A stretch of DNA of 35,671 nt. Origin: Thermosipho sp. (in: thermotogales) (GTDB lineage Bacteria > Thermotogota > Thermotogae > Thermotogales > Fervidobacteriaceae). The notes beneath the pieces are model-generated. The model was not told the origin of the DNA. It was given only the letters and a program-made list of their open reading frames with translations, and searched no databases. The stretch spans positions 1-35,671 of the forward strand of contig JASKLO010000015.1 in NCBI GenBank assembly GCA_030153605.1, in the 5' to 3' direction. The position numbers and the translations under genes were made by a program. This document shows positions 23,125 to 28,092 of the stretch, piece after piece. Position 1 is the stretch's first letter. Every line of letters begins with the position of its first letter.

Positions 23125-24630
23125 ATGCGAGAGTTTTTTATATTACTTAAATACGGTGGTTCTACAGTTTATTCCCAACCTCTTATATCTAAAAAGAAAA
23201 AATACAATTTATTAAAAAACCAATTAATATTATCTTTAATTGGTTCCGTCCCGCTTGGAATTATAATATTCTTCTTTACTAAAGATCTATTTACAAATTT
23301 ATACTCTGTTGATCCTCGAATTTCTAAACTTATGTTTCTTTTCTGGATGACTATACTTTCTTTGTTTTTTATTATTGGATATTTGGGTATGGCGATGTAT
23401 TCTCTTTCAAGAAATGAAGAAATAGAACTTCTTCTAACAATGCCAATAAAAAGAAGAACACTTACTATTTATCAAATCTTTGTATCAACAATTTCACAAA
23501 TGTTTGTTTTATCTTTCTATTTCTTTATATATCTTTCTTATATGATTGTTACAAAAGATAACATAATACTTGGAATAACCAGGTTGTTAGTGCATTTTAT
23601 GTTTTTATTAAGTTTTTCTTCTGTAATAGCTGTTTTGCTAGGGGGAAGAACCAGTAAAGGGTTTGTAAGAAAATTAAATGTTTTTATTTCTTTATTTGCA
23701 ATTTTTTTCTACTTATTTATAATTAGCTTTCAGAACGTAAAAATAGATCAGTTTCAAGCAATTGCAAAATTATTTAATTTTATAACAAAACCATATAACA
23801 TCTTTGCATGGAGTTTTATTTCTAATAATCTTTTCTTTTTAGCTTCTGTTATAACTATTTTATTAGTATTAATTTTTTCTAAACTAGCAGATAACCTGGC
23901 TTTTGAACCAATAGAGAGAAAAACTAGTAAAAATTACAGAATTAAAGGTCGTGGAAATATCATTAAAGCTGTTTATAGTAAAGATTTAAAAGCAACCTTA
24001 CGATACGAACAATTTTTGTACTTTATTTTATATCCTATTGGCTTTGGAATTTTCTTTTCCTTTATCAATAAAGATTATTTTATAACTCTTTTTACAATCA
24101 TCCCAATAACAACCTTTTATGTTGCTTTTGAAACTGCCATTTTAACAAATTCAGAACTTTTAAATATTAAAACCATTTTGTCTTATCCCATCAAATTTTC
24201 TACTTTAATGTTTCCAAAAGTTATAATCCCAACATCAATTAATTTTGTAATTGTTTTTGGAATCTTTATCATTTCAGCTTTTAAAGAAAATCTAACTTTA
24301 CTTTCTTATATGATCATTCCAATTACTTTTCTTTTGTTTTCAATGAGCTCAATAATTGGAATATATTTTGTTATAAAAAATCCACCAAAAACAGAAAATA
24401 TGAATAGAATTTTTGGAATAGGACAGACATTTATTATAGAAGGAATAACTATGGGACTTGCATTTGGCTCGATTCTTCCTATTGTATTTTTAAATAATCC
24501 TCAAACCTCTTTTAAATCAAAGATAATTTTTCTTTTAATAATGTTTGCTTCAATTTGTACTTCAATTATTATTTCATTAACTATATTTAGAAAATTAAAA
24601 AAACACTTGGACATATGGATTGAAAATTAA
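23125..24630 (+). CDS. ABC transporter membrane protein (exporter permease)
   Basis: This 501-residue inner-membrane protein is hydrophobic along most of its length, with around twelve helices and a charged stretch near residues 265-285. The order (ATPase, then large permease four bases later) is typical of an ABC-2-like exporter. The N-terminal cytoplasmic region includes MREFFILLKYGGSTVYSQPL, and LTMPIKRRTLTIYQIF resembles the coupling helix of this class. A GAGGTGAG site overlaps the end of the ATPase gene. The stop codon overlaps the stop of the convergent helicase gene. No substrate can be named. Confidence 0.85.
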   Translation: MREFFILLKYGGSTVYSQPLISKKKKYNLLKNQLILSLIGSVPLGIIIFFFTKDLFTNLYSVDPRISKLMFLFWMTILSLFFIIGYLGMAMYSLSRNEEIELLLTMPIKRRTLTIYQIFVSTISQMFVLSFYFFIYLSYMIVTKDNIILGITRLLVHFMFLLSFSSVIAVLLGGRTSKGFVRKLNVFISLFAIFFYLFIISFQNVKIDQFQAIAKLFNFITKPYNIFAWSFISNNLFFLASVITILLVLIFSKLADNLAFEPIERKTSKNYRIKGRGNIIKAVYSKDLKATLRYEQFLYFILYPIGFGIFFSFINKDYFITLFTIIPITTFYVAFETAILTNSELLNIKTILSYPIKFSTLMFPKVIIPTSINFVIVFGIFIISAFKENLTLLSYMIIPITFLLFSMSSIIGIYFVIKNPPKTENMNRIFGIGQTFIIEGITMGLAFGSILPIVFLNNPQTSFKSKIIFLLIMFASICTSIIISLTIFRKLKKHLDIWIEN

Positions 24631-27600
24631 TTAAATATAACCTTAGCTTTTTTAAAAGAAGGAATTTTTAATTTACTTTCTTCTAAATTAATACCCAATT
24701 CCTTTGAAAAATCTATAAGTTTTTTTAATGCTTTTTTTCCAAAGTATTTAGGAGTATACATATAAAACTTTCTGAAATTATTTATAGCTACCTTTATTTT
24801 TTTCTTCCTTATTTCTAAAAACGCTTTAACTAAATGGATATATGGATTTCCAGGATAATTTTCAAAAAGCCTTTCCAGATTCCAACTTAATATTTCAAGT
24901 TCCTTTTCTTCTGTTTCAGATGTTATTTCATCAATTAAATTTAACATTTCTATCTCATCAAATCTTTGAATAATCTTTATCAATTTTCTTGTATATACTG
25001 ATTCATTAAAATAATTCAATATATATTTTTTAACTTCTTCATTTGTTTTTGCGTTTCTAGCAAGTTCAACCATGTTTAACAAAGATTTTCTTCTTTGTTT
25101 TTCAATTCTTTTATAAATAAAATCAATTAGTATCGAAATTGATTCTTCTATACCCGTTTTATAATTTATTTCTAGAACCTCCCCATTTTTAAATAAATAA
25201 TTTTTTAAGTTATCCACAATTTCTCTTTTATCTTTATATGATACTTTAATTTCAAATACTTTTTCTTTTCCTTTAAATTCAACAGTATAACCATCAATTA
25301 TTCCCAATAAAGTAAGCCTATAAATAATCTTTTCAATAGAACCTTTTGTGGATTTTACTTCTAAAAATTTGTACCTTCCTTTTTTCAAAGTTGCTAAATG
25401 AGGCCTAAGCATTCTATAAAATTTTATTGTTTCAACTTGCTCAATTTCTTTTCCTCTAAATGAATTAAAATGAAAATTTAATTGTGTAAAAATATCATCT
25501 GATATATATTTATAATTTTCAAAAAGTTTAATTGCTATCCTATTTGGAAGCTCAGGATTTAAAATTACATCAGTTAAATCTGGCCTTTCTTCTGTGAAAA
25601 TTAAAAACGAAAAAGAATCTAATCTATCTCTACCTGCTCTTCCCGCTTCTTGATAGAAAGCTTCAATTGATGAAGGTAAATTATAATGAATTGTATATCT
25701 AATATCTGGCTTGTCTACTCCCATTCCAAAAGCTTTTGTGGCAACCAAAATAGATACTTCATTATCTAAAAATTTCTTCTGTACCTTTTGCTTATATATT
25801 GAAAAATCTTTAAACTTTAAATCTTTCGGTTTTCTACCAGAATAGATTTCAACATTTAAACCTTTCTTTTTCAAAAAGCTGTAAACTGAATATAGTCCAT
25901 TTTTTCCTTCAATAGTACTAGAAAAAATTATACCTGGTATCTCTGCAATATTTTTAACATTAAATATCTTTGGAATTTTATAAAATAAAATTTCTTCCAA
26001 AGCTTTCTCTTTATCTTTTGTTTTAATTACCTCAAAATGTAGTTCTTTTCTATCAAATGTTTCAGGAGTTAAAATAGAATCTTCTTCTTTAATTTCCAAG
26101 TTTCTTTTTATATCCATTAAAACAGAATAAGAAGCTGTTCCAGTTAGGGCTATTAATGGTATTTCGTTATCACCAGTGATTTGTTTTAAATTTTGGGCAA
26201 TATTTAGATAAGCAGGTCTAAAATCTTCTCCCCATTCTGAGATGCAATGAGCTTCATCAATAACTAAAAACGAAATCTTTAAATTCATTTCTCTTAACAA
26301 TTTTCTGAAACTTTTTATTTCAAGTCTTTCTGGCGAAATGAAAAATAACTTATATTTTCCTTCTTCTAAATTTTCCAATATCATTTGCTTTTTTTCTGGT
26401 TCCTGATTGCTATTTATATATACACATGAATTTATTCCTTGAATATGTAGTTTACTAACCTGGTCTTCCATTAAAGATTTTATAGGGTCAACAATTATAA
26501 CTACACCAGGTTGTAATAAAGCACTTAATTGATAAGTGAGTGATTTTCCACTTCCAGTTGGAAGCAATCCAATTGTAGATTTACGCTCTAAAATCCTTTT
26601 TATTATATTCAACTGTCCTTTTCTAAAATGTTCTTTTCTAAAAACATTTTTCAAAATAAAATCCAATGCTTCTTTTTTTGCTTCGTTTAACTCATATTTT
26701 TGAAAATCAAAATCGTAAAAAAGTTGAGCACTTTTTAAGGCAATATGTTCTAAAGGAATAATTACCACTAATTTTTCCCTGTTCTGTAGAGAATATTTCA
26801 ACCTTTTTTTGTTAATTCCTGCATCAATGATTAAATCAAAATCATCTTCATTATTTAATTCAAAAATTTCTTTATATTTTACATTTATATAACTGCTTTC
26901 TTCAGAAATTTCATTTATGTTTTCTCTAAATATTGTCAATTCAATTTTTGGAAAAGAAAAATCAAATAATTTAGATAGATTTTTCATGTAAATATAAAAA
27001 TCTTCTAAAGCAATTTTTGAAAATCTTGCATCATTTTCTATTACAGCTATTTTCCATACCTCTTTTTCTCTTAGCAAACCATGTACTATTGCACTTACAA
27101 GTGTTTTATGAAGCCAGGAAGATAAAATTGAGATTGCAAATAAATTATTTGAGGAAACAGTAAAATTGCTTAATTCATTTAAATAACGAATTTTTAGAGA
27201 ATCATTAATAGGGAGTTTTCTTAATTCCGTTTCAAAAAATATTGATGAATAGGTAGGAATTCCTCTTTGGATTATATTATTGTAAACTTTGGAAATTACT
27301 GTTAAAATAGAATCATTTTTTGAAAAAATTCCAAAATCAGTTGTTGTGAATTTTGAAAATTCTATAAATTTGGATAATTCGGTATCATTTAGAATTTCTT
27401 CAAAAAATTTTGGATAGAAAAGGCAATTGAAAATGTTTCTTTCTTGCTTTTGCGGAAGGTAATTTACGGTTTGTGCAAGAAAAACACCTATAACATCTAA
27501 AGCACCATATGCTTTAAGGGTATTAGCAATTTTTATGAAAGAATTTCCTGTAGTAATAATGTCATCAAAGAGAATCACTGTCTTGCCCTGAAATTTTTTT

Positions 27601-28061
27601 GGATTGAATTTCAGATAATCGAGAATATCTTCGTTCGTTCTTGAGACATGTTTTGCTGGTCTGTCTTTTAAATTTTTAATATAACTAAAACCATTTTTGA
27701 ATTTAAGATTTCTAGAAACTATCTTTGCAAACTTTTTAAATCTTTTTCGAGTCTTTGATTTAGTGGAAGCTGGAATAACACAAAAAACAGAATTATGATC
27801 TATTATCTGTTTGTTTAATAATTTTGAAATAACTTCTGCAAAATTTCTTACAGTATCATTTTCCCCTTCTTTGAACTTATAAATCTTTTCTCTCAAATAC
27901 CTCTCATCTTTATCTAGAATTTCATCGGGAAAATCTTTTTGAGGGTAATATTTTGAAAGTATGAAAACTTTATAATTTCCTATTTTTGTTTTAATCTTAA
28001 AATCTTTAAAAATTGTTTGAAAATCAACTGGAAAATCTAATATTTCTATGTCTTTTCCCAA
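24627..28061 (-). CDS. Phosphoribosyltransferase-RecQ helicase fusion protein
   Basis: The 1144-residue protein (numbering below is from the alternative TTG at 28070) joins several parts. Residues 80-205 are a ComF-like phosphoribosyltransferase with the PRPP loop VILFDDIITTGNS (165-177) and a preceding FCVIPASTKSKTRKRF. Residues 220-470 are a middle domain I do not recognise, containing WKIAVIENDARFSKIALEDF and DLIIDAGI. Residues 478-830 are a RecQ-type motor: FRKGQ, LLPTGSGKSLTYQL, VIDEAHCISEW, LTGTASYSV and QEAGRAGRD. The last 300 residues lack the cysteines of the RecQ zinc domain and carry YKRIEKQRRKSLLNMVELAR. Such fusions exist in other bacteria, to my knowledge without an established function. 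The TTG at 28061 is nine bases from AGGAG. It is last in a long operon. Confidence 0.85.
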   Translation of the reverse strand: MGKDIEILDFPVDFQTIFKDFKIKTKIGNYKVFILSKYYPQKDFPDEILDKDERYLREKIYKFKEGENDTVRNFAEVISKLLNKQIIDHNSVFCVIPASTKSKTRKRFKKFAKIVSRNLKFKNGFSYIKNLKDRPAKHVSRTNEDILDYLKFNPKKFQGKTVILFDDIITTGNSFIKIANTLKAYGALDVIGVFLAQTVNYLPQKQERNIFNCLFYPKFFEEILNDTELSKFIEFSKFTTTDFGIFSKNDSILTVISKVYNNIIQRGIPTYSSIFFETELRKLPINDSLKIRYLNELSNFTVSSNNLFAISILSSWLHKTLVSAIVHGLLREKEVWKIAVIENDARFSKIALEDFYIYMKNLSKLFDFSFPKIELTIFRENINEISEESSYINVKYKEIFELNNEDDFDLIIDAGINKKRLKYSLQNREKLVVIIPLEHIALKSAQLFYDFDFQKYELNEAKKEALDFILKNVFRKEHFRKGQLNIIKRILERKSTIGLLPTGSGKSLTYQLSALLQPGVVIIVDPIKSLMEDQVSKLHIQGINSCVYINSNQEPEKKQMILENLEEGKYKLFFISPERLEIKSFRKLLREMNLKISFLVIDEAHCISEWGEDFRPAYLNIAQNLKQITGDNEIPLIALTGTASYSVLMDIKRNLEIKEEDSILTPETFDRKELHFEVIKTKDKEKALEEILFYKIPKIFNVKNIAEIPGIIFSSTIEGKNGLYSVYSFLKKKGLNVEIYSGRKPKDLKFKDFSIYKQKVQKKFLDNEVSILVATKAFGMGVDKPDIRYTIHYNLPSSIEAFYQEAGRAGRDRLDSFSFLIFTEERPDLTDVILNPELPNRIAIKLFENYKYISDDIFTQLNFHFNSFRGKEIEQVETIKFYRMLRPHLATLKKGRYKFLEVKSTKGSIEKIIYRLTLLGIIDGYTVEFKGKEKVFEIKVSYKDKREIVDNLKNYLFKNGEVLEINYKTGIEESISILIDFIYKRIEKQRRKSLLNMVELARNAKTNEEVKKYILNYFNESVYTRKLIKIIQRFDEIEMLNLIDEITSETEEKELEILSWNLERLFENYPGNPYIHLVKAFLEIRKKKIKVAINNFRKFYMYTPKYFGKKALKKLIDFSKELGINLEESKLKIPSFKKAKVIFN

Positions 28062-28092
28062 AACACTCAACTCCTATCTTCTTTACTTCTGC

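What the first reader, a model, noticed from the sequence alone, without database searches (positions are those of the whole stretch)
24627..28061. Phosphoribosyltransferase-RecQ fusion with an unknown middle domain and no zinc site
A single 1144-residue protein combines an apparently intact PRPP-binding loop (VILFDDIITTGNS), 250 residues of unrecognised sequence and a complete RecQ motor. The cysteines of the RecQ zinc-binding domain are absent, replaced by a helical C terminus. PRTase-helicase fusions are known to occur, but I know of no assigned function. The pairing could couple DNA unwinding to nucleotide salvage, to base or nucleotide modification, or to phage defence.
Basis: partly seen in the sequence, partly recalled or inferred. 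Interest (0 to 1): 0.62.

Follow-up and report, generated by a model that had tools for sequence, protein, structure and literature searches.

The report
Nucleotide-enzyme-and-helicase fusion in Thermosipho
A heat-loving Thermosipho bacterium carries one large protein joining an intact phosphoribosyltransferase (the enzyme type used as the toxin in the ShosTA anti-phage system) to a DNA-unwinding motor, and its closest relatives sit beside the matching antitoxin gene or in phage-defence islands, so it is probably a settled, partnerless version of an undescribed defence-type machine.

Summary
On the minus strand (24627-28070, or from the TTG at 28061) lies a 1144-1147 aa gene with an intact PRPP loop (VILFDDIITTGNSF), a middle region without known relatives in Pfam or PDB, a complete RecQ-type motor and no zinc cysteines. 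Orthologues occur in 8 of 103 Thermotogota genomes (all 4 of its genus, syntenic, and all 4 of a sister genus); PRTase and motor are equally constrained.

It is not a RecQ with odd additions. The middle and C-terminal regions define a family of long RecQ-like helicases found on plasmids, on viral contigs and in E. coli defence islands. In most relatives outside Thermotogota a DUF559-like nuclease is inserted in the middle region; enterobacterial ones add HAD and PRTase domains. Ten loci have a small coiled-coil, tail-anchored partner gene next door. Enterobacterial copies and two sister-genus copies adjoin a ShosA-type DprA gene. The PRTase resembles ShosT. The zinc-type scaffold remains without cysteines.

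Best reading: a ShosT-like PRTase effector hard-wired to a DNA-sensing helicase, defence/toxin-like in origin, fixed and partnerless in Thermosipho. The mechanism is inferred, not shown. PRTase-helicase fusions (RqlH/PsyrT) are known, in the reverse order, so this is a new variant of a known kind.

The parts
24627..28070 (-). PRTase-middle-RecQ fusion gene, 1147 aa from TTG at 28070 (1144 aa from TTG at 28061), stop included
28071..28075 (-). AGGAG ribosome-binding-like sequence, 9 nt before the TTG at 28061 and abutting the TTG at 28070
27456..27890 (-). type-I PRTase domain, residues 61-205, closest to ShosT
   Evidence: Pfam, PADLOC ShosT 1.4e-17, weak fold support: HGPRT/PurF matches with Foldseek prob 0.93-0.99 but E 0.02-0.07, alignment with solo ShosT-like PRTases
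27741..27776 (-). presumed pyrophosphate loop IPASTKSKTRKR, residues 99-110; IPAS nearly invariant in the family and in ShosT-like PRTases
27537..27578 (-). PRPP loop VILFDDIITTGNSF, residues 165-178
27171..27455 (-). middle region A, residues 206-300, with the family motif NNI.QRG.PT; in relatives outside Thermotogota a DUF559-like nuclease follows this motif
26673..27170 (-). middle region B, residues 301-466, alpha/beta domain (ILSSWLH..., WKIAVIEND, FDLIIDAG)
   Evidence: hhalign to outside family members prob 97; AlphaFold pLDDT 65-86 over residues about 331-420
25581..26672 (-). RecQ-type two-lobe helicase core, residues 467-830
26541..26558 (-). Walker A TGSGKS, residues 505-510
26247..26258 (-). 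DEAH box, residues 605-608
25626..25652 (-). motif VI QEAGRAGRD, residues 807-815
24993..25580 (-). winged-helix-like element and cysteine-less RecQ-Zn-type scaffold, residues 831-1026
   Evidence: hhalign to Thermus/Thermomicrobium relatives that keep the cysteines, prob 95.8; AlphaFold pLDDT 69-88 over residues about 873-991
24630..24992 (-). helical, possibly TPR-like tail, residues 1027-1147
   Evidence: weak Foldseek matches to TPR proteins; inference from sequence

Best explanation
The protein is an N-terminal ShosT-type phosphoribosyltransferase joined to a RecQ-like motor of a defence-associated helicase family. Anatomy: PRTase, an alpha/beta middle domain that in relatives outside Thermotogota houses a nuclease, a 3'-5' RecQ-type motor (polarity inferred from the family), a winged-helix-like element with a zinc-type scaffold that has lost its cysteines, and a helical tail. 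Proposed mechanism, inferred: the motor engages single-stranded or broken DNA; the conformational change passes through the middle domain and releases or activates the PRTase; the PRTase consumes PRPP or alters the purine nucleotide pool and so blocks replication of phage or stressed host DNA. In relatives a ShosA-type DprA gene (the presumed antitoxin) and a membrane-anchored coiled-coil partner accompany it; in Thermosipho both are missing from the locus and the gene is fixed in the chromosome, so it probably acts alone in a low-toxicity, damage-responsive role. Shown: the architecture, the conserved PRPP loop and motor motifs, purifying selection, family membership, partner and defence-island links of relatives. 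Inferred: enzymatic activity, coupling between domains, and any effect on phage.
For: PRTase best matches ShosT; solo relatives on Bacteroidota plasmids are paired with ShosA/DprA or SLOG genes. Middle and C-terminal regions are homologous to those of plasmid and viral-contig helicases (hhalign prob 97.0 and 99.4). Enterobacterial relatives are HAD-PRTase-DUF559-RecQ proteins, annotated with DprA and a small gene in all 7 E. coli genomes that carry them, with two of two chromosomal copies examined lying in the yecA defence island. Ten loci have an adjacent coiled-coil gene with a C-terminal membrane helix. ShosA-type DprA genes adjoin the orthologues in G078 and G081. PRTase as constrained as motor (dN/dS about 0.11 and 0.10). 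Literature: RqlH toxicity needs its PRTase pocket (PMC4670107); DprA-PRTase protects against T7 and lambda (PMC9122126); ShosT is described as a PRTase and pyrophosphatase that disturbs purine metabolism (review PMC12593503).
Against: In Thermosipho the gene is syntenic in all four genomes, in ordinary chromosome, with no antitoxin or coiled-coil partner at the locus, unlike a mobile defence system. The HAD domain of the enterobacterial relatives is absent, so ShosT chemistry may not carry over. In G079 the PRTase is cut off by a frameshift while the motor frame stays open, so the PRTase may be dispensable there. ComFC shows that a PRPP pocket can be regulatory rather than catalytic (PMC9005727). 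The structure models are too poor to test the domain coupling.
Confidence: 0.5

Rival explanations
1. Housekeeping DNA-repair helicase with a sensory PRTase: in Thermosipho the protein serves as the RecQ-family repair helicase, and the PRTase binds PRPP or nucleotides as an allosteric switch (as in PurR, PyrR or possibly ComFC) that tunes unwinding to nucleotide supply.
For: The only RecQ-type hit in its genome; vertical, syntenic inheritance in 4 of 4 genomes with no partner genes; purifying selection; ComFC precedent for nucleotide binding that the authors could not assign to catalysis; rqlH without rqlI is common in other bacteria.
Against: Relatives are defence- and antitoxin-linked; most other Thermotogota lack the family, so it is not a general repair need; zinc and HRDC features of repair RecQ are absent.
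Confidence: 0.3
2. Natural-transformation factor: a fused counterpart of ComFC (PRTase) and ComFA (helicase) that hauls or handles incoming single-stranded DNA with DprA.
For: PRTase also matches comF (5e-10) with the same DDIITTG loop as ComFC; DprA neighbours in relatives.
Against: ShosT match is stronger; no ComFC-type zinc finger (only 4 scattered cysteines); motor is RecQ-type, not ComFA; the adjacent DprA genes are ShosA-type, second copies beside the canonical dprA.
Confidence: 0.08
3. Relic: a former defence system that has lost its partners and nuclease and is drifting.
For: No partners in Thermosipho; frameshifted PRTase in G079; fast middle and tail regions.
Against: Low dN/dS across PRTase and motor and intact motifs in all four Thermosipho genomes.
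Confidence: 0.07
4. Nucleotide salvage or base modification coupled to unwinding.
For: Intact PRPP loop.
Against: No salvage genes nearby; PRTase groups with ShosT-like sequences; no base-binding hood identifiable.
Confidence: 0.05

Closest known systems
RqlH / PsyrT (RqlHI and PsyrTA toxin-antitoxin systems)
   Same: RecQ-like motor plus PRTase in one chain; often found without its antitoxin; DprA-type partner in some relatives
   Different: PRTase is at the C-terminus in RqlH and at the N-terminus here; RqlH is about 700 aa and has no middle domain or tail; cysteines absent here; no profile similarity between the post-helicase regions
ShosTA (ShosT PRTase, ShosA DprA-like antitoxin)
   Same: PRTase most similar to ShosT; ShosA-type DprA next to two orthologues and to the enterobacterial relatives
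   Different: ShosT has no helicase; here no HAD domain, and no ShosA at the Thermosipho locus
DpdF helicases (PADLOC profile PDLC02868)
   Same: RecQ core scores highest with DpdF profiles; the Klebsiella relative matches PDLC02868 along about 1000 residues, 1.8e-111, so PADLOC already holds such helicases under that name
   Different: No dpd genes nearby; window protein matches DpdF profiles only over the core and is far below the NCBIfam DpdF cut-off (170 vs 550 bits)
Canonical RecQ
   Same: Two-lobe motor, 1e-56 to solved RecQ
   Different: No zinc site, RQC or HRDC Pfam match; 320 bits against a recQ equivalog cut-off of 640
ComFA/ComFC
   Same: Helicase plus PRTase with DDIITTG loop
   Different: Separate genes, ComFC zinc finger, different helicase type

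Membership tests
Type-I PRTase | PRPP loop with acidic pair and T-G-x-S/T | tested here: met
   VILFDDIITTGNSF; DD and G-x-S/T kept in all orthologues with the domain
Type-I PRTase | catalytic activity with PRPP | not testable with these tools
   needs biochemistry
RecQ family (canonical) | SF2 RecQ motor motifs | tested here: met
   TIGR00614 289 bits, above its cut-off of 219.8
RecQ family (canonical) | four-cysteine zinc domain, RQC and HRDC | tested here: not met
   no Pfam hits; cysteines only at 97, 216, 549, 609
RqlH/PsyrT | PRTase C-terminal to the RecQ motor | tested here: not met
   PRTase at residues 61-205, motor at 467-830
RqlH/PsyrT | adjacent DprA-like antitoxin | tested here: not met
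   absent in Thermosipho, present beside orthologues in G078 and G081; not obligatory for rqlH
ShosTA | ShosT-like PRTase | tested here: met
   PADLOC ShosT 1.4e-17 over residues 66-210
ShosTA | ShosA-type DprA gene adjacent | tested here: not met
   one canonical dprA elsewhere in the genome only
ShosTA | phage protection or toxicity | not testable with these tools
   needs an experiment
DpdF | full-length match and dpd gene neighbourhood | tested here: not met
   core-only match, below NCBIfam cut-off; no dpd neighbours
ComFC | N-terminal zinc finger plus PRTase | tested here: not met
   no cysteine cluster
Long RecQ-like helicase family described here | homologous middle region B and C-terminal region around the RecQ core | tested here: met
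   hhalign prob 97.0 and 99.4 to non-Thermotogota members
Long RecQ-like helicase family described here | downstream tail-anchored coiled-coil gene | tested here: not met
   absent at the Thermosipho loci; present at 10 other loci

The most novel reading that the evidence does not exclude
The protein belongs to an uncharacterised anti-phage system spread over several phyla: a RecQ-like sensor helicase with exchangeable effector modules (ShosT-type PRTase with or without HAD, and DUF559-type nuclease), a ShosA-type DprA regulator and a tail-anchored coiled-coil protein that links the complex to the membrane. Thermosipho has domesticated the PRTase version as a one-protein, partnerless module.
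Probability: 0.45. Interest if true: 0.75.

Novelty: new variant of a known kind. Interest (0 to 1): 0.55.

Why it matters
It ties three separately described items (RqlH-type PRTase helicases, the ShosTA toxin-antitoxin system and DpdF-like defence helicases) into one family with exchangeable effector modules and a shared partner set. That gives a directly testable hypothesis for why a phosphoribosyltransferase is fused to a DNA motor: the motor senses DNA state and the PRTase is the effector. The enterobacterial three-gene operon can be tested in laboratory E. coli, and the Thermosipho protein offers a thermostable single-chain version for structure and biochemistry.

Tried and rejected
Middle domain as a degraded helicase lobe: no similarity to either lobe or to the PRTase (hhalign prob 0.1), while the same profile finds the outside family members with prob 97; the test has limits, since the two true lobes do not find each other either (prob 1.1). 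Middle domain by Pfam/PDB profiles: nothing credible. Relation to the 1011-1076 aa RecQ-like proteins of other Thermotogota (C3a193-like): not supported beyond the core. Relation of the C-terminus to RqlH's post-helicase region: not supported. Tail-anchored partner elsewhere in the Thermosipho genome: not found, but without a positive control. Viral-contig scans with single proteins found nothing; the alignment scan found 26 helicases, of which two carry both family regions and one more the C-terminal region. AlphaFold models were poor (mean pLDDT 49.9 and 52.7) and Foldseek gave no significant match for middle or tail. A first alignment with whole viral relatives mis-aligned the PRTase with the RG.PT motif and was replaced. 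The broad genome-contig scan, spent on the single protein, returned only one close relative, so spread outside Thermotogota rests on plasmid, phage, E. coli and viral collections and is undercounted.

Full report
OBSERVATION. The gene lies on the minus strand, 24627-28070 (TTG start; a second TTG at 28061 has a better-spaced AGGAG), 1144-1147 aa. Residues 61-205 are a type-I PRTase: Pfam Pribosyltran 5.6e-7, PADLOC ShosT 1.4e-17, comF 5e-10. Its PRPP loop VILFDDIITTGNSF shares DDIITTG with the PRPP-bound ComFC crystal structure (PMC9005727). Residues 467-830 are a RecQ-type motor. Cysteines are at 97, 216, 549 and 609 only, so there is no zinc site. Residues 206-466 match nothing credible in Pfam or PDB.

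DISTRIBUTION. The nearest named relative is a Thermosipho MAG (76% identity). Of 103 Thermotogota genomes, 8 hold the full architecture: all 4 of the window's genus and all 4 of a sister genus in the same family; a profile of the C-terminal region finds the same 8. Other Thermotogota hold RqlH-like proteins with the PRTase at the C-terminus (L016-L018). In the window's genus the locus is syntenic in 4 of 4 genomes (UvrD, DUF72, sigma factor, radical SAM, GGDEF, this gene, convergent ABC permease). PRTase and motor are equally constrained against L005 (dN 0.112/dS 1.01 and 0.108/1.07), the middle and tail less so; dS near 1 makes these rough. In G079 a frameshift separates the PRTase from an otherwise intact gene 94.5% identical to G080's; an assembly error is possible.

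THE WIDER FAMILY. A weak match of the middle region (E = 1) led to a Haliscomenobacter plasmid helicase that shares middle region, core and C-terminal region (36% identity over the best 422 columns). Further members: Salinibacter, Rhodothermus and Klebsiella/E. coli plasmids, more distant ones on Thermus and Thermomicrobium plasmids, and viral contigs L055 and L057, with L061 sharing the C-terminal region. Profile comparison of Thermosiphonaceae against outside members gives prob 97.0 for middle region B and 99.4 for the C-terminal region. In Klebsiella, Rhodothermus and Salinibacter, Pfam finds DUF559 inside the middle region; in Haliscomenobacter and the viral relatives a similar insert is seen by eye only. 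The Klebsiella/E. coli protein is HAD-PRTase-middle with DUF559-RecQ-C-terminal region, 1558 aa. The window protein has no such insert between the RG.PT motif and region B.

ZINC DOMAIN. The C-terminal region aligns (prob 95.8) with Thermus and Thermomicrobium relatives that still match RecQ_Zn_bind weakly (4e-5 and 8e-4) and keep a CxxCxxC cluster. So the cysteines were most likely lost from an inherited scaffold. AlphaFold gives usable confidence only for residues about 873-991; winged-helix is a sequence-based reading.

PARTNERS. Ten loci in this family have, directly next to the helicase on the same strand (mostly overlapping or within a few bases; about 100 bp away in Salinibacter), a coiled-coil protein with one C-terminal hydrophobic helix: Klebsiella, Rhodothermus, Thermomicrobium, Haliscomenobacter, Salinibacter, L055, L057, G078, G079, G080. 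It is absent in the window's genus, G081, Thermus and L061. DprA: upstream in Klebsiella and annotated next door in all 7 E. coli genomes that carry the gene (of 5426); divergently adjacent in G078 and G081, where it is a second DprA beside the canonical one. All three scored are ShosA-type in PADLOC. Two chromosomal E. coli copies lie in the yecA island, one between type I restriction and the MZA system; others are on plasmids.

PRTase AFFINITY. Solo PRTases closest to the window's domain on Bacteroidota plasmids adjoin DprA or SLOG genes. The PRTase loops IPAS and DD(I/V)xTxG are shared. Literature: RqlH toxicity requires the PRTase pocket and is restrained by RqlI (PMC4670107); a DprA-PRTase pair protects against T7 and lambda (PMC9122126); ShosT is reported to be a PRTase and pyrophosphatase that disturbs purine metabolism, with ShosA as antitoxin (review PMC12593503). 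ShosT structures exist in PDB (8zvb, 9w2q).

MECHANISM. Inferred: the motor senses or opens DNA and gates the PRTase, which drains PRPP or skews purine nucleotides. In relatives ShosA-type DprA and the tail-anchored coiled coil regulate or place the complex. The Thermosipho version has neither at its locus, so it may be a low-toxicity, domesticated form; a repair helicase with a PRPP-sensing domain is the main rival.

NOVELTY. PRTase-RecQ fusion is known (RqlH, PsyrT), and PADLOC holds enterobacterial-type relatives under a DpdF profile (PDLC02868). Not found in the papers searched (open-access library only): the N-terminal PRTase order, the shared middle and C-terminal regions, the module exchange between PRTase and nuclease, and the tail-anchored partner. 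Hence new variant of a known kind. Limits: relatives outside Thermotogota were sampled from plasmid, phage, E. coli and viral collections only; enrichment in defence islands was not tested statistically; functions rest on homology.

Noticed in passing
L040:5788-11875, L052:14075-20162, L053:14075-20162: Three-gene operon DprA / HAD-PRTase-DUF559-RecQ / tail-anchored coiled coil in Klebsiella and 7 of 5426 E. coli genomes; two chromosomal copies lie in the yecA defence island beside type I restriction (and, in one, MZA).
   Followed up: yes
L057:2098-9372: Viral contig with a retron-type reverse transcriptase, a 241-aa unknown protein, a family helicase and its tail-anchored partner in a row; possible retron-helicase link.
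   Followed up: partly
L055:3351-9361: 1737-aa family helicase with a roughly 270-residue N-terminal extension of its own (methyltransferase-like by eye, no Pfam match) plus tail-anchored coiled coil: another N-terminal module.
   Followed up: no
L105:1271-3698: G077 (same family as Thermosipho): solo PsyrT/ShosT-like PRTase, a 184-aa gene and a PsyrA-type DprA gene in a row.
   Followed up: partly
L107:3787-6535: G070: RecQ-like gene (461-aa frame, stop inside the match) followed by a PsyrA-type DprA; an apparently broken RqlHI locus.
   Followed up: partly
L020, L021, L022, L023, L024: Other Thermotogota carry 1011-1076 aa RecQ-like proteins; the one tested, L022, matches PADLOC C3a193 ('poss. 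alt. Cas3') along its whole length at 2e-295.
   Followed up: no
L034:4923-8426: Segatella plasmid with three tandem ShosT-like PRTases followed by ShosA-type DprA and HAD genes.
   Followed up: no
G000:C3:12818 and L092-L098: Canonical DprA open frames are 260-280 aa in Thermosipho and its sister genus but 335-363 aa in most of the rest of the family: a shortened DprA in exactly the two genera that carry the PRTase-RecQ gene.
   Followed up: no
window 23125-24630: 501-aa membrane protein after an ABC ATPase, no Pfam match, convergent with the gene and overlapping its stop by 4 bp in the window.
   Followed up: no
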